A stretch of DNA of 64,000 nucleotides. Origin: Streptomyces wedmorensis. Lineage in GTDB: Bacteria > Actinomycetota > Actinomycetes > Streptomycetales > Streptomycetaceae. Under the pieces are notes generated by a model. It did not search any database and was not told where the DNA came from. It worked only from the letters and a program-made list of their open reading frames with translations. Of the stretch, positions 9,950-20,769 are shown one piece after another (within the stretch, counting starts at the first letter, position 1; each line of letters starts with the position of its first letter). The stretch is from contig NZ_JNWK01000035.1 in NCBI RefSeq assembly GCF_000716445.1, positions 62,001 through 126,000 of the forward strand, given 5' to 3'. Position numbers and translations under genes: made by a program.

Positions 9950-10033
9950 CTACCCGTGCGTCATCCCACCCCTCGAGTGAGGTAATGTTTTCCCTGCACG
10001 ACGACGCGGGGGAAACCCCACGGAGACGCGCAT

Positions 10034-10107
<74 letters not shown>

Positions 10108-10126
10108 CTCGAAAGAGTCGTAGGTC

Positions 10127-10171
10127 AGAGGCCGTTTCAGAGCAATCTGAAACGGCCTCTTGATCGTTTTT
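10127..10171 (+). terminator. Rho-independent terminator after tRNA-Pro
   Basis: A perfect 15-bp stem, AGAGGCCGTTTCAGA against TCTGAAACGGCCTCT, with loop GCAA, followed by TGATCGTTTTT. It probably ends the tRNA transcript and may also insulate the RiPP-like operon, which ends at 10255 on the other strand. Confidence 0.9.
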
Positions 10172-10254
10172 GGGGACCTTTCGGGGACCAGCGCACTTGA
10201 GCGGGGCGAAGCGCATGGGGGGGGGGAGGGCCTCGCGGGTCCGGCGTCGGGCGG

Positions 10255-11007
10255 TCAGTACGGGAAGTCGCGGCGGGACTGGTACTGCTTGCCCCCGAGC
10301 AGCTCGACCACGAGGTCGGACGGGTCGGCGAGAGTGGCCAGTTGCGAGCGCATGTCCTCCTGCGGCACGCAGAAGGTGTGCGTGTAGGTGATGAGCAGGG
10401 CGGACCTCGACCCCGTGGAGCGGTTGGGACGGGACGTGTGCCACCAGGCGCCGTCGGCGAAGATCACGCTCCCGCGGGGACCGGCGAGGATCTCGCCCTC
10501 GTCGCACCACGACTCCCCCATGTCCGGCAGCCGGTTCGCCCGGTGCGAACCGGGAATGCCGGCGGTGGCGCCGTTCTCCACGGTGAAGTCGTCCAGGAAC
10601 CAGATGCACTGCCCGGCGAGCGGGACGGCGGGCCACGGCGGGGTCAGCGTCCAGTAGGGGTGGTCGGCGTGCCAGTACTGCTCGACGGCGCCGGGCCAGA
10701 GCGTGTTCGAGCTGAACGTCGAGCAGATCAGGTCCTCGCCGAGATAGCGCCGCCACACGGCGAGGACGAAGGGGTGGACCAGGGCGTCGAGGAACACGGG
10801 ATCCTTCGCCAGCAGATGCAGGACCCGTTGGTGTCCGCTGGGGTGCAGATTGCGCTGCTTCTCCGCGTACAGCAGCCGTTCGAGGGACTCCCGCATCCGG
10901 TCGACGGCCGGTTCGGGCAGCAGGTTCTCCACCAGCAGGTAACCGCGCTCGCCGATGGCGCGGACCACCGAGTCGGCCCGCGGCAGGTCGAGTTCTGTCG
11001 TCGTCAT
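10255..11007 (-). CDS. Phytanoyl-CoA dioxygenase (PhyH)-type Fe/2OG oxygenase
   Basis: A 250-aa cytosolic non-haem iron oxygenase. The iron facial triad is visible as H113-x-D115 (YWHADHPYW) and H190 (GAWWHTSRPN), with R201 placed to bind 2-oxoglutarate. Surrounding segments (CIWFLDDFTVENGATAGIPGSH) are typical of PhyH hydroxylases acting on small molecules or peptides. It is the last gene of the RiPP-like operon, 19 bp after the TfuA-YcaO gene, so a tailoring hydroxylation of the product is the natural inference. The ATG at 11007 follows a moderate GGAGA ribosome binding site. Confidence 0.85.
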   Translation of the reverse strand: MTTTELDLPRADSVVRAIGERGYLLVENLLPEPAVDRMRESLERLLYAEKQRNLHPSGHQRVLHLLAKDPVFLDALVHPFVLAVWRRYLGEDLICSTFSSNTLWPGAVEQYWHADHPYWTLTPPWPAVPLAGQCIWFLDDFTVENGATAGIPGSHRANRLPDMGESWCDEGEILAGPRGSVIFADGAWWHTSRPNRSTGSRSALLITYTHTFCVPQEDMRSQLATLADPSDLVVELLGGKQYQSRRDFPY

Positions 11008-11026
11008 GGCGTTCTCCGGTCGGGAT

Positions 11027-13627
11027 TCAGGACCAGCGGGGCAGCAGGTCGCGCAGGAGCGTCAGCCGGGCGCGCTCTCCGGTCGCAAACGGATTGTTGC
11101 TCTCCAGGCCAGGGACGATCACCCGCACGACATGGCCGGGCGCGGTCTCCGGGCGGGAAAGGTCGAGCACGGGAACGTGGGCGACACCGGCGTCGGCGAC
11201 CCGCCGCAGGGTCCACCGCAGGTCGTCGAGCACGTCGTCACAGGTATGCCCTCGTGGGAGCGGGGTCGTGACGATGTCCGGGTCGAGCCAGAACCAGGCG
11301 TCCTCGTGCGAGATGGGACGAGGCCGTTCGTGCCGGCCGAGGCTGCGGGCCCTGATCGTGAGGTCCTCGCGACCTCCCGCCACCGAGCAGGCGATCGACT
11401 GGGCGGCCTCCAGCAGGGCCATCTCGACCGCCGTCCCGGGATCAGGATGGGTGCCGTAGCCCTCGGCGCGGTCCAGGCCCCGCCACACCGTCACCATGAA
11501 CGTGGGGACCTTGACCTCCGACGTGATGTCGAGGACCCGGACCACGTGCCCGGCCCGGCGCAGCCGCTCCGCTGCCTCGCGCGCCCGGTCCGGAGCGGTG
11601 TCGGGGTCCACGAACCGGAACGGCGGCGCCCCCGTCCCGCCGGGGTTCACCAGGGCGACCTCCGCGAGGCGCTGGGCATGGCGCTCCACGTACTCGCACA
11701 GCCCGTGCAGCAACGCCTCCTCGAGGGAGAATCCCGACCCCAGACCGTTGGTCGCGATGACTTTCCGTGCCCCGCGCGGACTGAAGCAGATGTCGCCCCG
11801 GCCGCGTTCGAGCCGCAGCAGGTCGAGCGGGACGAGGACCGTCCGGGCGGTGAGGAGGTCCGGGCAGCGCACCCAGGTCAGCGGCAGCTCGGGGGTGTAA
11901 CCGCTGTCGTACGGCAAGGCCAGTCCCGCCGGGTCCACGGCGTCGCCGCCCAGCTCGCGGTAGCTGCCCTCGACGAGGTCGTCGGCGCGCGGCACCCAGC
12001 GCTCCTGCGCCCACTTCTCCAACTCCTCCATGACGCTGCCGACGTACGCACCGTCCTCGGTGAGCCCCTTGCCGCTTCCGTACGTGCTGGACCAGCGGCC
12101 GTCGGGTCGGGCGGCCTGCGCGATCTGGACGCCGCCGATGTCCCCGAGCTCGCCGACCATCCCGATCCGGGTGATCCCGATGGTCTTCGCCAGCCGCTCC
12201 GCGTGGTCGCGCGCCTGACGCAGAGAGGTGCAGAAGCGTCGCTCCCCGGGGGGCTTCGGCCGACTGCGCAGCCCTGGGGCAGGGTGCGGTGCGGTGCGGG
12301 CGGCGGCGGGCAGGGCCCCGCCGGCCATCGTCGCGGCCAGCGTCCGTACGTTACGCCGAGCCCGCGCGAGCCCTTCGGCGAAGGCGTCCTGCGCGGCGCG
12401 GTCGCCATGACCCCACTGTGCCCACCGCTGCCGCAGGGCCTCCCGGTCGACCGCCAGGTTCGCCTTGCAGAGCACCTGCCACGCCTCGGCGAGTTCCCCG
12501 GCTCCCGCCGGGCGGGGATCCTCCTCGGCGAACAGGCGCAGCGCACCCTGCCGCATCACCTCCCGCTTGAGCGAGGCGTCGTGCAGGAACAGCGCGGCGC
12601 GCACCGATCGACGGAACACCTCGCGATCGGCCCTGGCCCACGCCGTCAGCCCGGCATCGGCCACGGCCTCCGCCTCGGCACGGCGGTTGAGGGTCGACAG
12701 GTCGATGCCGAGGTCCGCGAGCGTGACCCGGGCCTCCTCCGTGCTCAGCCACCCCCAGCGGCGCACGGCGGACCGGAACCCGGCCCGGGCGGCCTCGGCG
12801 TCGACCGCCGGCAACAGCTCGGGCGGTACGGGATGGGCGGCACGGCCCAGCGGTTCGAGCCGCCCCGTGTACGCGAGGAAGGCGAACAGTTCGTCGTCGT
12901 CGACCCGGTCGCCGCTCTCCCAGATCAGAGCCGTACCGGTGGCGACGGGCTCGGCGACCGGCCGCTCCACGTTCACGCGGGGCTCCCCACCGGGCATGGG
13001 CGCCACCCGGGCCGCCCCCACCGCCTCCAGGACCGACTGGGCATCCCGGTGCTTGAGGTCGTGCCCCGCCAGCATGGCGACGAGGTCCTCGCCGTCGGCG
13101 CGATCGAGCAGCCCGGCGGAGCGGACGACGCGGCGGTGGGTGCGCGCCTTGTACGGCAGCTCCAGCGCGGCCGCGAGCAGACGGTCGGCGGTGGGTCGGT
13201 CGATGGTGCCGCCGCGGTGCAGGCGGTCGACCGCGTAGCGGACGTTCACCATGGGCACGGTCAGAGGAGCGGCGGTCTCCGCGTCGAACAGCAGCGCGAC
13301 CTCGTCGTCCCGGCTGATGGCACCGTCGCGGTACCAGGCGTGGACCAGCCCGATGCCGATGACACCGGGAACCTCGGCCGCGCGCAACGCGCCCATGCTG
13401 CCGCCGCCGTACACGACGACTCCCCGGTCGACGGCCGAGCGCACCTCTGCCGGGCTGACCGCGAGGGACTGCTCGAAGACGCCGTCGACGATCCCGACGA
13501 CCTGTCCGGCAGGGAACGCGTCGAGGTCGCCGCGCCGGACCGGCCGACGGTAGTCGGCGTCGAGGAGCAGACGGGCCTCGGCGAGGGGCATCGACGGGCC
13601 GAGGAACACGACCGGCCGTGTGTTCAC
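11027..13627 (-). CDS. TfuA-YcaO fusion protein
   Basis: An 866-aa protein. Residues about 5-210 are a TfuA-like domain (VFLGPSMPLAEAR, then IVDGVFEQSLAVSPAEV and VVYGGGSMGALRAAEV). Residues 230-460 are a helical linker of unknown fold. Residues about 465-866 are a YcaO cyclodehydratase domain with SGKGLTEDGAYVGSVMEELE (518-537), SLEEALLHGLCEYVER and YGTHPDPGTAVEMALLEAAQS, the ATP/Mg-binding blocks. No Pro-rich YcaO tail is present, as in thioamide-forming enzymes. In known systems separate TfuA and YcaO proteins install peptide-backbone thioamides (McrA of methanogens, thiovarsolins). Here they are one chain. The GTG at 13627 overlaps the upstream stop by 4 nt. Confidence 0.88.
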   Translation of the reverse strand: MNTRPVVFLGPSMPLAEARLLLDADYRRPVRRGDLDAFPAGQVVGIVDGVFEQSLAVSPAEVRSAVDRGVVVYGGGSMGALRAAEVPGVIGIGLVHAWYRDGAISRDDEVALLFDAETAAPLTVPMVNVRYAVDRLHRGGTIDRPTADRLLAAALELPYKARTHRRVVRSAGLLDRADGEDLVAMLAGHDLKHRDAQSVLEAVGAARVAPMPGGEPRVNVERPVAEPVATGTALIWESGDRVDDDELFAFLAYTGRLEPLGRAAHPVPPELLPAVDAEAARAGFRSAVRRWGWLSTEEARVTLADLGIDLSTLNRRAEAEAVADAGLTAWARADREVFRRSVRAALFLHDASLKREVMRQGALRLFAEEDPRPAGAGELAEAWQVLCKANLAVDREALRQRWAQWGHGDRAAQDAFAEGLARARRNVRTLAATMAGGALPAAARTAPHPAPGLRSRPKPPGERRFCTSLRQARDHAERLAKTIGITRIGMVGELGDIGGVQIAQAARPDGRWSSTYGSGKGLTEDGAYVGSVMEELEKWAQERWVPRADDLVEGSYRELGGDAVDPAGLALPYDSGYTPELPLTWVRCPDLLTARTVLVPLDLLRLERGRGDICFSPRGARKVIATNGLGSGFSLEEALLHGLCEYVERHAQRLAEVALVNPGGTGAPPFRFVDPDTAPDRAREAAERLRRAGHVVRVLDITSEVKVPTFMVTVWRGLDRAEGYGTHPDPGTAVEMALLEAAQSIACSVAGGREDLTIRARSLGRHERPRPISHEDAWFWLDPDIVTTPLPRGHTCDDVLDDLRWTLRRVADAGVAHVPVLDLSRPETAPGHVVRVIVPGLESNNPFATGERARLTLLRDLLPRWS

Positions 13628-14811
13628 CGTACGAGCCCATCGATCTCGCCCGGTCGCGCGCGGCGCAGCAGCCCCTCGGACACCAGCTTCCGGACGACGT
13701 CGACCGCGGCGCCCGGGGCGAGGACGCCGGGCAGGTCGACGGCACGCAGCACGCGTGCCCCGGCCACGTGCTCGAACGCGGCCAGCACACCGCTCGGTCC
13801 GCGGACCGCGCCACCCGGGAAATGGATCGTCGCGGAGACGTCGTCCGTGGTCACGCGGCAGTCCGTGCCCCGTGCGCGCACCAGCCACGTCTTCTCGTCG
13901 ATCCCCTCCAGGCCGCCGCGCTCGCCGAGCCCGCCGTCCGCCAGGACCACCCGGCGGGCGGTGCGCCGGGCGGACAGTCCGTCGAGGAGGCCCGGCAACG
14001 CCGTACGGATGCCCGGGGAGCCGAGCAGGTCGGCCAGCCCGGCGGCGAGCGCGTCGGCATCGGCCGTACGGGCATGCGGGACCGGCGCGTCCAGACCGGG
14101 CAGGCCCGCCACGACCTCGTCGAGGACGTCCCGCCAGCGCAGCGGGAAGAGCCTGATCGTCAGGTGCAGGGACGATGAGGTCCCGGTCCGGGCCACGTGC
14201 CCGCGGTACTCGGGCACGTACAACACGTCCCCCGGCTCCAGCGCGAACTCCCGCTGCGGGATCCGAGCCCAGTCCCGCGCCGGGACCCCGCACGGCTGCT
14301 GCGGGCCGTTGCCCTCCTCCACCCGCCAGGTCTTGTGCCCGTCGAGCTGCACGACCAGGCTCCCGTGGTCGTCGCGGTGCGGCGCGAACCCCTGCGCCGC
14401 GGCCGGTGTGGCGAACACGTGGGCACCGGCCGGCGCCCGGAGGGCGACGCCATGCTCCGCCAGGTCGAGTTCGATGCCGCGGCACAGGTCGGCCAGCGAC
14501 GGCGAGAGCCGGTGCGCCTTGGTCAGGTAGAGCGTCTCGCCGTCCTCGAACAACTGCCGGACCTGTCGCAGGTCGAGCATGCCGTCCGCGTCGACGACCG
14601 TCGGCGGCAAGGGGCGTCGGTCTCCGCCGCGGGCCAGGTGCAGCACGCCCTCGTGCGCGTGGTGCAGGGCACCGAGCATGGCCTCGAAGCCGTCCATGTC
14701 GAGCGGTGGGGCACTCGAGGCGGCGCCGGGGAACAGGCGCGCCTCCCGACTCCGTACCGAGTCGACGAAGGCCGCCGCGTCCGTCGGGCGGAGCAGCTCG
14801 GCGAGCGTCAC
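13624..14811 (-). CDS. JmjC/cupin-type Fe/2OG oxygenase (ROXA/NO66-like)
   Basis: A 395-aa protein. The cupin core holds H145-x-D147 in HRDDHGSLVVQLDGHKTW and the distal H205 in EPGDVLYVPEYRGH, the iron ligands of JmjC ribosomal-oxygenase-like hydroxylases. K160 of the same strand is placed to bind 2-oxoglutarate. The C-terminal ~100 residues resemble a winged-helix dimerisation region of that family (LRAVDLPGVLAPGAAVDVVRKLVSEGLLRR). Known relatives hydroxylate ribosomal proteins; beside a RiPP-like precursor the peptide is the more likely substrate. The GTG at 14811 overlaps the radical SAM stop by 4 nt. Confidence 0.85.
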   Translation of the reverse strand: MTLAELLRPTDAAAFVDSVRSREARLFPGAASSAPPLDMDGFEAMLGALHHAHEGVLHLARGGDRRPLPPTVVDADGMLDLRQVRQLFEDGETLYLTKAHRLSPSLADLCRGIELDLAEHGVALRAPAGAHVFATPAAAQGFAPHRDDHGSLVVQLDGHKTWRVEEGNGPQQPCGVPARDWARIPQREFALEPGDVLYVPEYRGHVARTGTSSSLHLTIRLFPLRWRDVLDEVVAGLPGLDAPVPHARTADADALAAGLADLLGSPGIRTALPGLLDGLSARRTARRVVLADGGLGERGGLEGIDEKTWLVRARGTDCRVTTDDVSATIHFPGGAVRGPSGVLAAFEHVAGARVLRAVDLPGVLAPGAAVDVVRKLVSEGLLRRARPGEIDGLVR

Positions 14812-16364
14812 GCGTCCTCCTGCCCCGGCTCGGAGCCGGCCGGCGGCGCGGGGTGGGGGATCGGTCGGTAGCGCTGGACGAGGAAGCGCCGCCTGCGCAG
14901 CTTCTCCTCGGGCGTGCAGGTGGTCACCAGTCTGCTGCCGGTGTGCTTCTCGTCCTCCACACGGCAGGTTCCGCCGCACAGGTTGCGCAGGTCGCAGGAG
15001 CGGCAGCCTTCCCGGTTGTCGACCCCGAAGGCCGCGGCCGTGCGCCCGAGGTAGGTCGTGATCTCGCCGAGCGGCAGCTGGTCGACGTGGCCGAGCGCAC
15101 CGGACATCAGGTGGCAGGGGTACACGAGCCCGTCGGGGGCGACCACGAGCTGCTCGGCGTATCCGCAACCGCTGATCTTCTGCACCATGTTGGACCCGTG
15201 GACCTTGTCGTCCTCCTCGCGCAGCTCGCCGAGCAGCGCGTCGACCCACGCCCGCACCTCGTCGGTGTCCAGGTCGTGGTCGAGGTCCGTGCCCCGGCCG
15301 TGCGCCATGGCGCCGTAACTGATCCGGAACCGCAGGTCGGTGTCGCGCCACTGCTCGGCGAAGCCCGGGAGTCCCGCCTTCACGGCTGCCCAGTTGGCGG
15401 CCATGACGGTCGTGCTGACCCGCGTCTGCACTCCGGCGTCGAGCAGGAGACGGATGGCGCGCACGGCCCGGCGGAAGGAGTGCGGGCCGCGGATCGCGTC
15501 ATGGGACTCGGCGGTGGGTCCGTCCACGCTGATCTGCACGATGTCGGCGTAGCGGACGATGTCGCCGAGGTGCTTGGGCACGGCCATGCCGTTGGAGAAC
15601 AGCGTGACCTCGAGCCCGAGTTCGTGGGCTCGCCGCATCACCGGGATGCAGCCCTCGTGCAGCAGCGCTTCGCCGCCGGTGAGGAGCAGCTTCTCCCCGC
15701 CGTTCGCCGCGAAGTCCTCCACCAGCCTGATCCAGCGTTCGGTGGTCAGTTCGCCGTCCTTGGGCAGCAACGGGCCGGAGCTGGTGTAGCAGTGCACGCA
15801 TTCGAGCTGGCAGCGGTTGGTCAGATGGAAGCGGGCGAACACGTGCGGCCGTACCTGCTTGACCGAGTGGTGGCCGCGGATCCCGCGCACCATCCCGGCG
15901 TGTGCGACCCGCGCGACGAGCTTGGCCATCGCCTGCGTCGCCGCGTCCGGGGCGAGCCCGTGGGACCGGTGCAGCTCGCGGGCGGCGTCGGCGGGCGTCG
16001 TGCCGGCGACGAGGAGAGTGAGCAGCGCGTGGTCGACGTCGTCGGCGACCAGCAGCTTGCCGTCCTCCACGGCGATCCAGAGGTGGGCGTCGTCGACCTC
16101 GTGGTGGGCGAGCGAGGAGACGAACGGGACCGGCTCCTTCGTGGACAGGTCGTAGACGGCGCGGGCGCCGTCGGCGGACCGGCGGGCGGGGTACCGGGCG
16201 GGGGCGGCGACGGTGGGCGACGGATCGTCCGCCGGGCCGACGGCGCCGTACGGAGCCCGGTCCGGCGCACCGAACCGCGGGAACGGCTGTGCGTCGTCGG
16301 GTCCCGAGAGCGCCGGTCCCCCCTGCCAGGCGCGAAGGGTCAGCAGGGTCTGCTTGCTGCTCAT
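14808..16364 (-). CDS. Radical SAM/SPASM peptide maturase with fused RRE
   Basis: A 518-aa protein. Residues about 75-165 look like a PqqD-type RiPP recognition element (HLWIAVEDGKLLVADDVDHALLTLLVAGTTPADAA...). The radical SAM cluster motif is C185-x3-C189-x2-C192 (CQLECVHC), followed by GGEALLHEG and ISVDGPTAESHDAIRG typical of the AdoMet barrel. A SPASM domain at the C-terminus has CGYAEQLVVAPDGLVYPC and C454RSCDLRNLCGGTC467, enough for two auxiliary Fe-S clusters. Such enzymes form thioether, C-C or C-N crosslinks, or epimerise, in RiPPs. The ATG at 16364 has AAAGGAG upstream. It is the third gene of the operon. Confidence 0.92.
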   Translation of the reverse strand: MSSKQTLLTLRAWQGGPALSGPDDAQPFPRFGAPDRAPYGAVGPADDPSPTVAAPARYPARRSADGARAVYDLSTKEPVPFVSSLAHHEVDDAHLWIAVEDGKLLVADDVDHALLTLLVAGTTPADAARELHRSHGLAPDAATQAMAKLVARVAHAGMVRGIRGHHSVKQVRPHVFARFHLTNRCQLECVHCYTSSGPLLPKDGELTTERWIRLVEDFAANGGEKLLLTGGEALLHEGCIPVMRRAHELGLEVTLFSNGMAVPKHLGDIVRYADIVQISVDGPTAESHDAIRGPHSFRRAVRAIRLLLDAGVQTRVSTTVMAANWAAVKAGLPGFAEQWRDTDLRFRISYGAMAHGRGTDLDHDLDTDEVRAWVDALLGELREEDDKVHGSNMVQKISGCGYAEQLVVAPDGLVYPCHLMSGALGHVDQLPLGEITTYLGRTAAAFGVDNREGCRSCDLRNLCGGTCRVEDEKHTGSRLVTTCTPEEKLRRRRFLVQRYRPIPHPAPPAGSEPGQEDA

Positions 16365-16434
16365 CGTGGCTCCTTTGGGGCCGGATGGGGGAGGGGACGG
16401 AGAACGGAGGGCGGCCGGGGCGGTGATCTCGGGA

Positions 16435-18231
16435 TCACCGCAGCCGCGGGCCGGCGACCCAGGCCACCAGAGCACGACGCAGCCCCTGGGTGACCGGCGT
16501 GACGCGGTGGTCGATCAGTGACGGGAAGACCAGCACCGAGCCGCGTTCGCGCGGCAGTTCCTCGGTATCGACGCCGAACATCTGCAATCCCCCGCCCTCG
16601 TACGAGGACGCATCGGACAGCTGGACGATGACGGTGATCTTCCGGGGGGAGTCGGTCTGGTCGTGGCTGTAGTCGTTGTGCCGGTGGAAGTGCCCGTTGC
16701 CGGGGAGGTACTCGACGTACTGCGGAGCGCGCGTGATGCCTGACAGGTCGAACCCGTAGGCGGTCCGCGCGGCCTCCCGCGCCACGGAATCGACCAGTCG
16801 GTAGATCCACTCGGTGCGTGGCCCCTTCGGTACGTACCGGGTCTCCGCTCGCCGATGGCCGGGATGCCCGGCCTCGTCCACGGTGGTCGGTGCCGTCAGC
16901 GGGAGACCGCGGCAGGCGGCGACGAGGTCGTCGCAGTCGGCAGCGGTGAGACGTTCCCGCAGGCGCATCCAGCCCAGGTGATGGCCGGCCGAAGGGCCGC
17001 TGTCACGGACCAGGGTCAGGTCGCGGGGCCGTGGGACAGGGTCTTCCGCTCGGGTGGGGGAGGCCGGAGCCGCGGCCGTGGCCGGGCCCCCCGCGGGAGC
17101 CGCGGTCAGCACGGGCGATGCCGGTCCCGCCGTGTCGTCGACCGGCCGAAAGAGGTTGTGCCGCACGAGGATCCGGGTCAGCTCGACGGCGTCGTAGTGC
17201 TGGCCGACCCCCGGCAGCTCCCTCGGGGTGAAGGACTCCGCCTTCGACACGTGGTCGACGACGGGCTGGAGCCGCCCGTCGAGGCGCAGGGTGCCGCCGG
17301 GGAAGGTCAGTCGCGCGAGCCCGTGGTCGCTGTCGGATTCACTGGGCATCAGCGGCACTCTGCGCACCGTGGTGTCCGGCGCGATCGCGGTGGCGGCGCT
17401 GCCCGCCGCCAGCTGCCCACCGGGCAGCGGGTCGAGTCCGACGATGCACCGTACGCGGCGCTCCCGCAGATAGGCGGGGACGTCGAGGTCCGGGAGGTCG
17501 GGCAGCGCGGGTCCGAGGGCCGCGGGTCCGGTGACCGAGCGGCGGAACGGCTCGTGGTCGCGCAGCATGTCCGCCATGGCGTCCGCCCAGGACAGCGTGT
17601 GCAGGCCGAGCGTGAGGTGCAGCGATGCCTCGTCAGCCGTGTGTGCGACGTGGGGGAAGTCCTGGGGGACGTACAGGACGTCACCCGGCTCCAGCGTCGC
17701 GGAGACGAGCGTTTCCGAGTCCTGCGACCCGGGTGCGAAGACCTCCCACCGCTTGGTGCCGTGCAGTTGGACGACGAGCACCGAATGGTCGTCGTGGTGG
17801 CGATCGAAGCCCTGCGCGCGCGGCGGAGTGAGGTACGCGTTGGCACTCACAGGCTCGGCGGGGAGCACGCCGAGCTCCAGCAGGTCGAACTCGATGCCGC
17901 GGCACAGCTCGCCGACCGGGGAGCAGCGGCGGGCCAGGAGGGAGAGCAGCAACGTGGCGCCGGAGCGGTAGGCGGTCAGGACGTCCCGCCCCGGAGACCG
18001 GTCGGAGTGGTGGGGGACGACCGGCCGTGCCCGGCCTTCCTGTACGACGCTGAGATCGGCGCCCCCGCCGCAGGCCAGCCGTTCGAAGTCGTCGATCGTG
18101 AACAGCCGCCCGACCAGCGGAGCGGCGGCCCCGCGGAGCAGCAGCGCTTCGCGCTCCCAGCTCATGCGGAGGAAGGACGTGACGTCCAGGCTGCCGAGGA
18201 CGGAGGCCAGCCCTCGCTTCTCCGTGTCCAT
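16435..18231 (-). CDS. Double oxygenase: JmjC-like domain fused to P4H-like 2OG domain
   Basis: A 598-aa protein. Residues 1-380 are a JmjC/cupin oxygenase related to the other one in the operon: H145-x-D147 (DRHHDDHSVLVVQLHGTKRW) and H194 (VPQDFPHVAH). A Pro/Ala-rich linker follows at about 385-415. Residues about 420-598 are a prolyl-4-hydroxylase-type Fe/2OG domain with H518-x-D520 (HRHNDY), an EGGGLQMF turn, H575 (LIDHRV) and R585/R586 for 2-oxoglutarate. Both iron sites look intact, so one polypeptide could carry out two oxidations. It starts 25 bp after the precursor stop, behind a small palindrome. Confidence 0.85.
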   Translation of the reverse strand: MDTEKRGLASVLGSLDVTSFLRMSWEREALLLRGAAAPLVGRLFTIDDFERLACGGGADLSVVQEGRARPVVPHHSDRSPGRDVLTAYRSGATLLLSLLARRCSPVGELCRGIEFDLLELGVLPAEPVSANAYLTPPRAQGFDRHHDDHSVLVVQLHGTKRWEVFAPGSQDSETLVSATLEPGDVLYVPQDFPHVAHTADEASLHLTLGLHTLSWADAMADMLRDHEPFRRSVTGPAALGPALPDLPDLDVPAYLRERRVRCIVGLDPLPGGQLAAGSAATAIAPDTTVRRVPLMPSESDSDHGLARLTFPGGTLRLDGRLQPVVDHVSKAESFTPRELPGVGQHYDAVELTRILVRHNLFRPVDDTAGPASPVLTAAPAGGPATAAAPASPTRAEDPVPRPRDLTLVRDSGPSAGHHLGWMRLRERLTAADCDDLVAACRGLPLTAPTTVDEAGHPGHRRAETRYVPKGPRTEWIYRLVDSVAREAARTAYGFDLSGITRAPQYVEYLPGNGHFHRHNDYSHDQTDSPRKITVIVQLSDASSYEGGGLQMFGVDTEELPRERGSVLVFPSLIDHRVTPVTQGLRRALVAWVAGPRLR

Positions 18232-18244
18232 GGGAATCAGTCCC

Positions 18245-18258
18245 GAGCGGCGCCGCTC
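18245..18258 (-). promoter_or_regulatory. Perfect palindrome at the precursor stop codon
   Basis: GAGCGGCGCCGCTC is self-complementary and overlaps the precursor stop codon, lying 14-27 bp upstream of the double-oxygenase ATG. A hairpin here could lower read-through or stabilise the precursor mRNA so that peptide exceeds enzyme, as in many RiPP operons. There is no T-run, so it is not a strong terminator. Confidence 0.45.
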
Positions 18259-18568
18259 AGCAACTCGGCCCGCCGACGTTGGACGCGCACCCTGTGCAGG
18301 CCGTGATCATGCCGAAGCTCTGGTTGTCCAGTTCGATGTCGACGGTCTGGAGGGAGATGGACATGACCTCCTCGGGCTCCGGCGCCGTCTCGTCGCCGGC
18401 GTCGCCCTTGACGGCGGCATCGGAGGCGTCGGTCTGCCCGGTGCGGCGGCGGAGCTCGATGGCGACCCGGTCGCCGTCGTTCAGCTCCACCCGCGGCGTG
18501 TCGGCGCCTTCGAACACCTCCACCACGATTTCTTTGCGTGGCTGAGTCATGTCAGTGTTCTCGCACAT
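18257..18568 (-). CDS. Putative RiPP precursor peptide
   Basis: A 103-aa acidic, soluble protein with a short Cys/Gly/Ser-rich end. Residues 1-82 look like a leader (VEVFEGADTPRVELNDGD; acidic stretch 46-67; SISLQTVDIELDN). The last ~20 residues carry three cysteines (C91, C94, C103) in ACTGCASNVGGPSC. It has no hydrophobic signal peptide. The ATG at 18568 is chosen for AGGAG 6 nt upstream; a second ATG is at 18550. It is the first gene of an operon encoding a radical SAM enzyme with a recognition domain, a TfuA-YcaO fusion and oxygenases, which is why it is called a precursor. I recognise no close family; core limits and cleavage site are not known. Confidence 0.72.
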   Translation of the reverse strand: MCENTDMTQPRKEIVVEVFEGADTPRVELNDGDRVAIELRRRTGQTDASDAAVKGDAGDETAPEPEEVMSISLQTVDIELDNQSFGMITACTGCASNVGGPSC

Positions 18569-18600
18569 GGTGCACTCCTGACTTGTTACATCAAGTGGGG

Positions 18601-19494
18601 ATGAAGGGGACTATGTTGCGGGAAAGCCTTCCTAGCAGTGACCTGGATCACAGTCAACGAAATGGAGGTCCAGGCGAGGGTGCGGCACCCGAACGGCACT
18701 TTCCGCTGGACCTCGCCATCGGGTGCACCTTCCGGAACGAAGCCAGGTTCCTGAGGGAATGGATCGAATTCCATCGGCTGATGGGCGTGCAGCGCTTCTT
18801 CCTCGTCGACGACCGCAGCGACGACGACTACCGGGACGTGGTGAAGCCGTACGTCGACGAAGGCGTCGTCCAGGTCATCGAGAAACCCTGCCCGCCCGCG
18901 TACGCGGGGCGCCGGTGGAACCAGTACCAGCACCTGGTCCTGGGCGGGCTGTGCAGGGAACTCCGGGGAGCCGTGCGCTGGCTGGCCCTCGTCGACGTCG
19001 ACGAGTTCCTCGTACCGACCGTCGCCTCCACCGTCATCGAGTTCCTCTCGGAGCACGAGGAGGCGGGAGCGGTGCACGTGGAATGGCGCATGTTCGGAAC
19101 ATCGGGCGTGCGGCGGCTGGGTACCGGGGAACTGCTCACCGAGCGCATGTGCCGACGCATGGCGGCACGCCCGAATCCGGGGAAGTCGATCGTCAAACCG
19201 CACCGAGTCGCCGAGGCGGGGATCCACCGCTGCGAGCTCCTGCCCGGCAGCGCCTACGTCACCGTTCCGGCCGACCCGGCCCCCGGGCGCGGCGGCATGC
19301 GCGTCCACCACTACTGGACCCGGGACGAGGAGTTCCTCCTCGGCACCAAACTTCCCCGTGCGGCGGAGACGAAGGGCTGGGAGCTGACACCGGAAGCCGT
19401 CGACTTCCATCGCACGGCGTACGACGACGTCGAGGACCGGCAGATCCGGCGGTTCCTGCCGGGCCTGCGGGAGCGGCTGGGGCGGGCTCGGTAG
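18601..19494 (+). CDS. Glycosyltransferase family 92-like protein
   Basis: A protein of about 297 aa with a GT-A fold of the GT92/DUF23 type: LAIGCTFRNEARFLREWIEFHRLMGVQRFFLVDDRSDDD at the nucleotide-sugar site, and LALVDVDEFLVPT containing the DxD metal motif. The C-terminal part has the RVHHYWTRDEEFL segment common in the family. The conserved region starts at about residue 35, so the ATG at 18601 or the one at 18613 is possible; neither has a good ribosome binding site. It is divergent from the putative precursor gene with only 32 bp between the start codons. It may glycosylate the RiPP product or a surface polymer. Confidence 0.8.
   Translation: MKGTMLRESLPSSDLDHSQRNGGPGEGAAPERHFPLDLAIGCTFRNEARFLREWIEFHRLMGVQRFFLVDDRSDDDYRDVVKPYVDEGVVQVIEKPCPPAYAGRRWNQYQHLVLGGLCRELRGAVRWLALVDVDEFLVPTVASTVIEFLSEHEEAGAVHVEWRMFGTSGVRRLGTGELLTERMCRRMAARPNPGKSIVKPHRVAEAGIHRCELLPGSAYVTVPADPAPGRGGMRVHHYWTRDEEFLLGTKLPRAAETKGWELTPEAVDFHRTAYDDVEDRQIRRFLPGLRERLGRAR
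18629..18657 (-). promoter_or_regulatory. Likely RiPP operon promoter with Crp-like palindrome
   Basis: On the minus strand a -35 box TTGACT (18657-18652) and a -10-like TAGGAA (18634-18629) are separated by 17 bp, about 60 bp upstream of the precursor ATG. The spacer contains TGTGA-TCCAGG-TCACT (18652-18637), matching the TGTGA-N6-TCACA form of CRP-family sites in 9 of 10 arm positions. A protein bound between -35 and -10 would repress. The element lies inside the first codons of the divergent glycosyltransferase gene. Confidence 0.5.
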
Positions 19495-19683: not shown

Positions 19684-20769
19684 CTACTGGAAGCTGAGCC
19701 GGTGCGGGTGTTTCGGGTCGGTGGGGCAGGTGTGGATGCGCATCAGGCCGCGGCCGAGGTGGACGCCGACCGGGTCGATCACGTCCGGGTCGTCGGTCGA
19801 ATCACGGTCCTCGAGTGGGAGCCAGCTTCCCGAACCGCCGTCGCACTCCCACTTGTCGACCGTGAGGAGGGGAGGCATCGGGGTGGCGCAGACCGCACAG
19901 TCGACCGGGGAGGGATCGGTGAGGTGCCAGGACGCGAAGCCGCCGACTTTCCATCCCGGGGCGATGGACAGGTCGCCCATGTAGGTGACCTCGTACTCCT
20001 CCTCCGCCCGGGCCCGGGCCATCGCGGCCTCGTACTCCTCGTAGGTGTCGTAGCTCCGCGGCTCTGAGGAGTCGTCCGTGTCCTCGTCGTCCTCCTCCTC
20101 GTCGAGGAGGCCCTCCTCCCGGTCCGCGAGGGCGTCCTGGAGTTCTTCGCTCAACAGGCCCTGGTACTCGTGCTCGACGACCTGCTCGGGGTGCAGGACG
20201 CAGCGGGTGGGTACGCATGCCTCGCGGCCCGCGACCGGGGGCTCGGGCTGGTTCGGGAGGACGTCGCCGACTTCATGGGAGCGCCGCCACTTCAGCACGA
20301 CGTCGATGGTGCGGTCGGGGCCGTGGGCCTCGAAGGGGCACCAGAAGACCTGGAGCAGGTCGTGGCCTTCCGGGCCGACGAGGTCGGGGATGTCGCGCGC
20401 GTACAGCTGGGCGACGGCCAGCAGAGGGAGGGGATCCTCGTCCCGGAGGTCCGGGGCGTGCCGTCCCGGGGCGATGGCGTCGAGGGTCCGTCGCTCCTCG
20501 TCGGAGAAGTCGCGTCCCCTCGCCTCCGCGAGGATGCGCCGCTTGAGCCGTACGTCGTCCAGCCGATGGCCTGTGCCCTTGGGGTGCACCGCGGTGCACA
20601 CCGGCCACGGCTCGTCGGCCGGCCACAACAGCGGTCCCGCCAGTGAGTTCTCCTCGGCCTTCGCCACGCCGTGGCGGGGATGCAGGCGCGTGGCCGTACG
20701 CCGGTGGGCGGAGAGCGCGGGAAGAACGGCTTCGACATCGACGGGGCGCGGGGGTGTGGTGCGGGTCAT
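19684..20769 (-). CDS. Conserved hypothetical protein (possibly YwqG/DUF1963-like)
   Basis: A 361-aa soluble protein with an excellent ribosome binding site (GGAGG, 6 nt from the ATG at 20769). The N-terminal SLAGPLLWPADEPWPVC resembles the opening of DUF1963/YwqG proteins. Residues about 230-255 form a very acidic run, followed by EEYEAAMARARAEEEYEV. The C-terminal third has paired cysteines (CAVCATPMPP, WECDGG, HTCPTDPKH) that could hold a metal. The function is not recognised. It stands alone between GT92 and a TetR gene. Confidence 0.7.
   Translation of the reverse strand: MTRTTPPRPVDVEAVLPALSAHRRTATRLHPRHGVAKAEENSLAGPLLWPADEPWPVCTAVHPKGTGHRLDDVRLKRRILAEARGRDFSDEERRTLDAIAPGRHAPDLRDEDPLPLLAVAQLYARDIPDLVGPEGHDLLQVFWCPFEAHGPDRTIDVVLKWRRSHEVGDVLPNQPEPPVAGREACVPTRCVLHPEQVVEHEYQGLLSEELQDALADREEGLLDEEEDDEDTDDSSEPRSYDTYEEYEAAMARARAEEEYEVTYMGDLSIAPGWKVGGFASWHLTDPSPVDCAVCATPMPPLLTVDKWECDGGSGSWLPLEDRDSTDDPDVIDPVGVHLGRGLMRIHTCPTDPKHPHRLSFQ

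What the first reader, a model, noticed from the sequence alone, without database searches (positions are those of the whole stretch)
10255..18568. A RiPP-like operon with an unfamiliar enzyme set
Six co-directional genes with 4-nt overlaps or small gaps (the largest is 70 bp): small precursor, JmjC-P4H double oxygenase, RRE-radical SAM-SPASM, JmjC oxygenase, TfuA-YcaO fusion, PhyH oxygenase. Seen directly: intact iron triads in four oxygenase domains, CxxxCxxC, SPASM cysteines and YcaO ATP motifs. From known families: TfuA/YcaO make backbone thioamides and SPASM enzymes make crosslinks. Inference: the product is a thioamidated, crosslinked and multiply hydroxylated peptide of a class I cannot name. 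No peptidase or exporter lies in the cluster, so these must come from elsewhere.
Basis: partly seen in the sequence, partly recalled or inferred. Interest (0 to 1): 0.93.

Follow-up and report, generated by a model that had tools for sequence, protein, structure and literature searches.

The report
Unnamed thioamide-type peptide gene cluster
A six-gene bacterial cluster appears to turn the nearly unchanging tail of a small peptide into a heavily modified molecule of a type that has not been described, and relatives of the same peptide occur in several bacterial groups.

Summary
On the minus strand, six intact genes run from 18568 to 10255: a 103-aa peptide, a JmjC-P4H double oxygenase, a radical SAM-SPASM enzyme, a JmjC oxygenase, a TfuA-YcaO fusion and a PhyH oxygenase. 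The same six stand in the same order in Actinomadura terrae and on the Streptantibioticus cattleyicolor megaplasmid, the only two other complete clusters I saw. S. nymphaeiformis keeps a decayed remnant.

New here: the peptide belongs to a family of 120 listed proteins, including Rhizobium, Labrenzia and Dormibacteraceae. In 49 of these, leaders vary (mean pairwise identity 33%) while the last 22 residues hardly do (81%): NQS(F/Y)GM..A.TGC.SN.GGP(S/G)C, ending on cysteine in 119 of 120. No NCBIfam model fits the 49 convincingly.

Best reading: a ribosomal peptide (RiPP) pathway making a thioamidated, probably Cys-crosslinked, multiply hydroxylated C-terminal peptide. RiPP is well supported. 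The chemistry is inferred from enzyme families, and the RRE on the radical SAM enzyme was not confirmed. The product's role is unknown; the near-fixed core, partly a search effect, argues against a diversifying toxin.

The parts
18257..18568 (-). Precursor peptide, 103 aa; variable leader, near-invariant C-terminal NQSFGMITACTGCASNVGGPSC
16435..18231 (-). Double oxygenase: N-terminal JmjC_2 (H145-x-D147...H194) and C-terminal P4H-like 2OG-Fe(II) domain (H518-x-D520...H575)
14808..16364 (-). Radical SAM-SPASM enzyme, CxxxCxxC at C185/C189/C192, seven SPASM-type cysteines; N-terminal region PqqD-like by eye only
   Evidence: RRE not confirmed (71, 78, 80)
13624..14811 (-). JmjC_2 oxygenase, H145-x-D147...H205; GTG start overlapping the previous stop
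   Evidence: no NCBIfam match
11027..13627 (-). TfuA-YcaO fusion (TfuA 48-163, YcaO 518-842); predicted backbone thioamidation
10255..11007 (-). PhyH-type 2OG-Fe(II) oxygenase, H113-x-D115...H190, R201
10127..10160 (+). Hairpin with a T-rich tail between the tRNA-Pro gene and the operon end; terminator-like, but shuffles give a mean of 1.7 such sites in the region, so weak
10034..10108 (+). tRNA-Pro(GGG); just past it three fetched relatives stop aligning with the window, so perhaps the insertion site of an island carrying the cluster

Best explanation
This is a RiPP biosynthetic operon of an undescribed class. The ribosome makes a 103-aa precursor. The conserved leader motif (KEI..E..EG...P.VEL) and the SISL...NQS segment are probably what the enzymes bind. 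The TfuA domain probably releases sulfide from thiocarboxylated ThiS, encoded elsewhere in the genome, and the fused YcaO domain uses it to turn one or more backbone amides of the TGC.SN.GGP.C tail into thioamides. The SPASM radical SAM enzyme probably ties an invariant Cys (C-10 or the C-terminal Cys) to a backbone or side-chain carbon. Two ribosomal-oxygenase-type JmjC enzymes, the fused P4H domain and PhyH probably hydroxylate core residues, with Asn-7 and Pro-3 as my best guesses for sites. Leader removal and export rely on genes outside the operon. Shown: the genes, motifs, synteny, precursor family and conserved core. Inferred: every reaction and its order.
For: Six-gene synteny in A. 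terrae (L003) and S. cattleyicolor pSCAT (L053), enzymes 71-84% and precursor 40-51% identical to the window. Precursor family: 120 listed members; in the 119 that end in Cys, Gln-21, Gly-11, Cys-10, Gly-4 and Pro-3 never vary. Mean pairwise identity 0.33 before the tail against 0.81 in it (49 of the 120 members). For 7 of the 16 listed homologs of the double oxygenase the longest-contig length equals that of a precursor family member, so they probably share contigs. TfuA aligns with solved TfuA 6xp8 and YcaO with MJ1094; the TfuA- and YcaO-related McrA-glycine thioamidation models are the best NCBIfam matches, below cut-off, while the general YcaO model TIGR00702 is above it. A ThiS homolog is in the genome. 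The JmjC domains match NO66/MINA/YcfD by profile and by fold. A JmjC enzyme hydroxylates a RiPP precursor in biphenomycin (PMC12707348, passages).
Against: No RRE profile match. No peptidase or exporter among the six genes. No mass or expression data. The rSAM is far below the cut-off of all 25 listed NCBIfam models (of 64 matching), and the second JmjC matches none. The near-fixed core is partly a search effect, because candidates must share 5-residue words with the query. Contexts of the Rhizobium, Labrenzia and Dormibacteraceae members were not seen.
Confidence: 0.72

Rival explanations
1. The product is a conserved-function molecule, such as a metallophore or peptide-derived cofactor, rather than an antibiotic; the modified TGC.SN.GGP.C tail binds a metal through thioamide and thiol groups.
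For: Core almost fixed in family members from Actinomycetota, Rhizobium, Labrenzia, Dormibacteraceae and unnamed contigs while leaders diverge; two invariant Cys plus a predicted thioamide.
Against: Very patchy: in a sample of 392 genomes of the genus only the window's own has an ortholog of the second JmjC gene; no partner dehydrogenase or uptake gene is shared by the gene lists around the complete clusters; decay in S. nymphaeiformis.
Confidence: 0.25
2. The product is an antibiotic-like specialised metabolite with a conserved target, spread by island transfer.
For: Island-like position next to tRNA-Pro, cluster absent beyond the shared left flank in 3 of 3 relatives fetched (other relatives with weaker flank matches were not fetched); megaplasmid copy; a GNAT gene next to the 2 other complete clusters could be self-protection.
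Against: No transporter or resistance gene among the six genes; the core motif was in no paper of the library.
Confidence: 0.5
3. The 103-aa protein is not a precursor but a small modified protein that stays whole, comparable to uL16, which E. coli YcaO thioamidates and RoxA hydroxylates.
For: The pairing of a thioamidating YcaO with a RoxA-type oxygenase is known on one protein (PMC13063428, passages); no peptidase among the six genes.
Against: A variable leader with a near-fixed C-terminal tail is the RiPP pattern; a SPASM-type radical SAM enzyme stands with it.
Confidence: 0.12
4. Chance neighbours: the peptide ORF is not a gene and the enzymes serve different pathways.
For: High G+C gives many spurious ORFs.
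Against: Same order in three genera and 120 listed precursor family members.
Confidence: 0.01

Closest known systems
Thioamidated RiPPs with TfuA-YcaO, including fused tfuA-ycaO clusters (PMC8120280, section 13 read and passages; PMC6511847, passages)
   Same: TfuA and YcaO domains beside a short precursor; fused tfuA-ycaO genes with two radical SAM proteins are reported in Burkholderia thailandensis, and a phytanoyl-CoA dioxygenase is named in the Figure 5 legend.
   Different: The main texts of both papers hold no 'JmjC' and no 'cattley'. I saw no cluster there with two JmjC proteins, a P4H domain and this precursor; figures and supplements could not be read.
Biphenomycin-type RiPPs (PMC12707348 and PMC12257519, passages)
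   Same: A JmjC enzyme (BipG/BpmG) and a radical SAM enzyme act on a short precursor.
   Different: Those use an MNIO, a B12 radical SAM enzyme, an arginase-type step and an FRF-type core; Pfam shows no such enzymes among these six genes and the core has no FRF.
E. coli uL16 modification by YcaO and RoxA (PMC13063428, passages)
   Same: A thioamidating YcaO plus a RoxA-type oxygenase acting on one substrate.
   Different: The substrate is a ribosomal protein; the paper says E. coli has no TfuA homolog. No radical SAM partner is mentioned in the passages I saw.
Sactipeptide/ranthipeptide maturases (StsB, SkfB, AlbA)
   Same: SPASM radical SAM architecture; best NCBIfam match StsB, 144.4 bits; best solved relative by sequence SkfB 6efn.
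   Different: Far below the StsB cut-off of 625 bits; core and partner enzymes differ.
Ribosomal oxygenases NO66, MINA53, YcfD (PF08007)
   Same: JmjC_2 profile match, fold and Fe ligands.
   Different: Fused to a P4H domain in one gene and placed in a RiPP-like operon; substrate unknown.

Membership tests
RiPP biosynthetic cluster | Short precursor gene conserved together with the modifying enzymes | tested here: met
   2 of 2 other complete clusters keep it
RiPP biosynthetic cluster | Leader/core split with a processed, modified core | tested here: inconclusive
   Leader 0.33 vs core 0.81 identity fits; processing not shown
RiPP biosynthetic cluster | Recognisable RRE (common, not obligatory) | tested here: inconclusive
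   PF05402 no match; Pfam none for residues 80-175; AF2 too poor to judge
TfuA-YcaO thioamidated RiPP | TfuA and YcaO both present | tested here: met
   PF07812 117.3 bits (cut-off 30), PF02624 224.4 bits (cut-off 25.7)
TfuA-YcaO thioamidated RiPP | Backbone thioamide in the product | not testable with these tools
   needs mass spectrometry
McrA-glycine thioamidation proteins | NCBIfam NF033432 and TIGR03266 cut-offs | tested here: not met
   174.3 of 235.2 and 134.6 of 365 bits
Sactipeptide (StsB type) | NF045574 cut-off | tested here: not met
   144.4 of 625 bits
Sactipeptide/ranthipeptide in general | SPASM rSAM and core Cys | tested here: met
   Cys pattern; core Cys; Pfam SPASM 19.7 bits, just under its cut-off of 21.5,
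Sactipeptide/ranthipeptide in general | Thioether bond | not testable with these tools
   needs MS/NMR
Biphenomycin family | MNIO, B12-rSAM and FRF-type core | tested here: not met
   Pfam of the six genes and core sequence
PF08007 JmjC_2 family | Pfam cut-off and Fe triad | tested here: met
   76.3 and 65.3 bits against 22; triads

The most novel reading that the evidence does not exclude
The TGC.SN.GGP.C family is a new, cross-phylum RiPP class whose near-fixed core becomes one nearly invariant small molecule, a thioamide- and cysteine-bearing metallophore or cofactor-like compound, made by an enzyme combination (YcaO-TfuA, SPASM, JmjC, P4H, PhyH) that I found reported for no product.
Probability: 0.25. 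Interest if true: 0.9.

Novelty: new variant of a known kind. Interest (0 to 1): 0.72.

Why it matters
It predicts a peptide modified by a YcaO-TfuA protein, a radical SAM enzyme and three kinds of iron oxygenase at once, and gives a searchable signature (a leader motif plus a near-fixed 22-residue tail) for a family of 120 listed precursors, many of them unnamed. If the chemistry is right it would put ribosomal-oxygenase-type JmjC enzymes beside a thioamide synthetase in a RiPP pathway, echoing the YcaO/RoxA pair on E. coli uL16. The S. cattleyicolor copy sits in a named, sequenced strain, so the claim can be tested directly.

Tried and rejected
Lanthipeptide reading: weak NCBIfam matches only (plantaricin C, 4 of 49 members, best E 0.021; mersacidin, 2 of 49, best E 0.15), and Pfam shows no lanthionine synthetase among the six genes. 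Biphenomycin membership: no MNIO, no matching core. The upstream glycosyltransferase (18538-19494 +) as part of the cluster: opposite strand and not among the shared genes of L003 and L053. RRE on the rSAM: three tests, none positive. Viral contigs for the precursor: 5 stretches matched a pattern, 0 confirmed. Precursor family in 398 Pseudomonadota genomes: 0 of 398, with no positive control in that set, so it shows little. Plasmid collection: precursor in 2 records, both pSCAT. Genomic context of the non-actinobacterial precursors could not be fetched. One Herbaspirillum and three Legionella loci came up through TfuA and YcaO only; they hold no precursor family member in the loci or in the searched genomes of L005, L006 and L008; the genome behind L007 was not searched. 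In some searches the second JmjC gene was given in a wrong frame (13624-14809); Pfam was repeated correctly and NCBIfam (no match).

Paper searches made. Statements that something is not in print rest on these only; preprints and most subscription papers are not held, and supplements were not readable.
Full report
WHAT IS THERE. The window is part of contig C35 of a 9.38-Mb genome; its closest named protein relatives are from Streptomyces. Six genes lie head to tail on the minus strand: A precursor 18568-18257 (103 aa); B JmjC-P4H 18231-16435 (598 aa); C radical SAM-SPASM 16364-14808 (518 aa); D JmjC 14811-13624 (395 aa, GTG); E TfuA-YcaO 13627-11027 (866 aa, GTG); F PhyH 11007-10255 (250 aa). 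Spacing is 25 bp, 70 bp, 4-nt overlap, 4-nt overlap, 19 bp. Pfam supports B, E and F above cut-off, C for radical SAM (SPASM 19.7 of 21.5 bits), and D. NCBIfam gives no match for A or D. Fe ligands are present in all four oxygenase domains. C carries CxxxCxxC and seven cysteines that fit the SPASM pattern. E aligns with residues 2-210 of the 217-residue TfuA structure 6xp8 and with YcaO MJ1094. No sigma-70-type promoter was found in 10000-18800, which says little for this kind of bacterium.

IT IS A UNIT. tblastn of the six proteins finds all six in the same order in Actinomadura terrae L003 (5140-13354) and on pSCAT of Streptantibioticus cattleyicolor, L053 (13965-22191). Identities to the window in L003 and L053: A 40 and 51%, B 72 and 77%, C 81 and 84%, D 71 and 72%, E 79 and 80%, F 84 and 84%. 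Outside the six genes, no predicted protein of the compared stretches is shared by the window with either at E <= 1e-10. L003 and L053 share one more gene upstream of the precursor, a GNAT acetyltransferase, 71% identical; tblastn of it against the window gave nothing better than E 0.17. In A. terrae two ABC transporter genes stand before that. Streptomyces nymphaeiformis (L004) keeps a wreck: 3.0 kb at 94.6% covering F and much of E, a 45-bp scrap of B, and part of the neighbouring glycosyltransferase gene; the rest is missing and E is spread over several frames. I only describe this remnant.

RARE AND ISLAND-LIKE. Of 392 genomes sampled in the same genus, 85 (own included) have some match to D at E <= 1e-10; apart from D itself no listed match exceeds 42% identity. 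Of 396 genomes sampled in the phylum, 55 (own included) match and, D itself apart, none listed exceeds 39%. In both searches at most 4 candidates a genome were scored. Relatives G004, G005 and G006 align with the window's left flank up to 10214, 10191 and 10191, just past tRNA-Pro(GGG) at 10034-10108, and then leave it; the cluster does not appear in the 12-15 kb fetched beyond, though G004 has a 71%-identical piece of the gene at 19684-20279 about 2.3 kb further on. Other relatives match the left flank more weakly and were not fetched. A second, 63-nt copy of the 3' part of that tRNA lies about 6.6 kb downstream in G004 and a 42-nt copy in S. nymphaeiformis; none was found elsewhere in the window. 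Insertion at the tRNA is therefore an inference.

THE PRECURSOR FAMILY. A single-sequence search gave 7 proteins, the window's own among them. A profile from these plus L003 and L053 gave 121 proteins at E <= 0.01, 120 listed, from Streptomyces, Yinghuangia, Streptantibioticus, Actinomadura, a Dormibacteraceae MAG, Labrenzia, Rhizobium ruizarguesonis and many unnamed contigs. In 119 of 120 the protein ends in Cys; the exception, P0052, stops at GGP on a 512-bp contig and is probably cut. In those 119 tails Gln-21, Gly-11, Cys-10, Gly-4 and Pro-3 never vary; Thr-12 and Ser-8 are kept in 118, Asn-7, Gly-5 and Gly-18 in 117, Asn-22 in 114, Ser-20 in 111 (Cys-1 is fixed by the way the tails were chosen). 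Among the 49 of 120 members that I picked for alignment A6, mean pairwise identity is 0.33 before the tail and 0.81 in the last 22 residues (1176 pairs). The search finds only proteins sharing exact 5-residue words, so members with other cores would be missed; the near-fixed core is therefore in part a selection effect. It is still the same tail under very different leaders. No NCBIfam model covers the family: 49 members scanned, only scattered weak matches, best E 0.0048. Cys91 of the window is Cys in only 5 of 119, so crosslink chemistry should involve Cys-10 or Cys-1.

LINK TO THE ENZYMES. The double oxygenase B has 16 listed homologs at E <= 1e-20 (its own gene's close relatives included), 7 with both Pfam domains (only the 7993 candidates sharing most words were scored). 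For 7 of the 16 the longest contig has exactly the length of the longest contig of a precursor family member. Equal length is taken as the same contig; this is inference. Two of these seven, P0015 and P0019, carry no P4H domain; P0015 leaves the alignable sequence halfway and may come from a damaged gene, P0019 suggests that the P4H domain may be dispensable.

HOW IT PROBABLY WORKS. TfuA is described as a hydrolase that, with thiocarboxylated ThiS-type carriers, supplies sulfide equivalents to thioamide-forming YcaO enzymes (PMC13063428, discussion passage). A ThiS homolog is in the genome, 75.2 bits against a cut-off of 37.45. Thioamidation of the core is the best-supported reaction, by homology. 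The rSAM is nearest to StsB by NCBIfam and to SkfB by solved sequence, both thioether-forming (recalled), but far from any listed cut-off. The JmjC domains match NO66, MINA53 and YcfD by profile; a 13-row AF2 model of B (mean pLDDT 73.1, pTM 0.48) matches NO66 best, and a Pseudomonas putida P4H for the second domain (TM-scores normalised by the whole two-domain query are low, 0.38 or less). In biphenomycin a JmjC protein, BipG, hydroxylates ornithine in a RiPP precursor (PMC12707348, passages), so JmjC in RiPPs has a precedent. The window's last 22 residues hold no Arg or His, so the sites must differ from those of YcfD, NO66 or BipG (their Arg, His and Orn sites); Asn-7 and Pro-3 are my guesses. 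The mSystems paper on RREs also notes bacterial JmjC homologs in RiPP-like contexts (PMC12710340, passages).

RESULTS AGAINST. RRE: PF05402 found six places in the genome at E <= 10, none in C; Pfam on residues 80-175 none; AF2 of C from two rows is unreliable (mean pLDDT 39.5), though it places three helices at 109-155 after short strands. By eye, residues 102-162 look PqqD-like. No exporter or peptidase is among the six genes. Pseudomonadota sample: 0 of 398. Incidence in Actinomycetota not measured. The Rhizobium, Labrenzia and Dormibacteraceae members rest on source names; their neighbours were not seen.

KNOWN OR NEW. PMC8120280 (section 13 read) reports fused tfuA-ycaO with rSAM genes in Burkholderia thailandensis and names a phytanoyl-CoA dioxygenase in its Figure 5 legend; PMC6511847 (passages) set three fused proteins aside. 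So parts of the theme are published. The main texts of these two papers hold no 'JmjC' and no 'cattley', and three spellings of the core motif were in no paper of the library. Figures and supplements were not readable here, so the cluster may be listed there without study. I therefore call it a new variant of a known kind: an uncharacterised RiPP class on the thioamide theme.

Noticed in passing
L082 8374-8613, L083 8787-9095, L084 8809-9021, L085 10797-11030: Asp/Thr/Ala/Gly repeat peptides (DGDATD, TDAD units) directly before a JmjC gene, with a following gene that is a sucrase/ferredoxin-like protein in the one case tested (L084); looks like another JmjC-linked peptide system.
   Followed up: partly
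L039 8833-8979, L040 10608-10754, L042 11054-11200: 48-aa peptide with DPTDPV/DNDPSDPV repeats right before a JmjC gene in three genomes of the window's genus.
   Followed up: no
L041, L043, L044, L046, L049-L051: Pairs of JmjC genes; in L041 and L043 with 39-59-aa peptides ending FDDIEFIETAEELLATSYYKNIQ; in L041 (the only one tested) also M13 and S9 peptidases and an MFS transporter.
   Followed up: partly
L047 261-10351, L048 752-11064: Separate YcaO and TfuA genes, a 61-aa peptide ending NSNKEWQE, a carbamoyltransferase (tested in L047 only) and a JmjC gene nearby.
   Followed up: partly
G000:C2:5816-6796 (L001): The genome holds a second YcaO domain (E 9.2e-100) outside the window, open frame 808 aa.
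   Followed up: no
window 10034-10131: Several near-copies of the tRNA-Pro 3' region in this genome and relatives, suggesting a busy integration site.
   Followed up: partly
P0057: A 144-aa precursor family member in which the leader module appears twice before one core.
   Followed up: no
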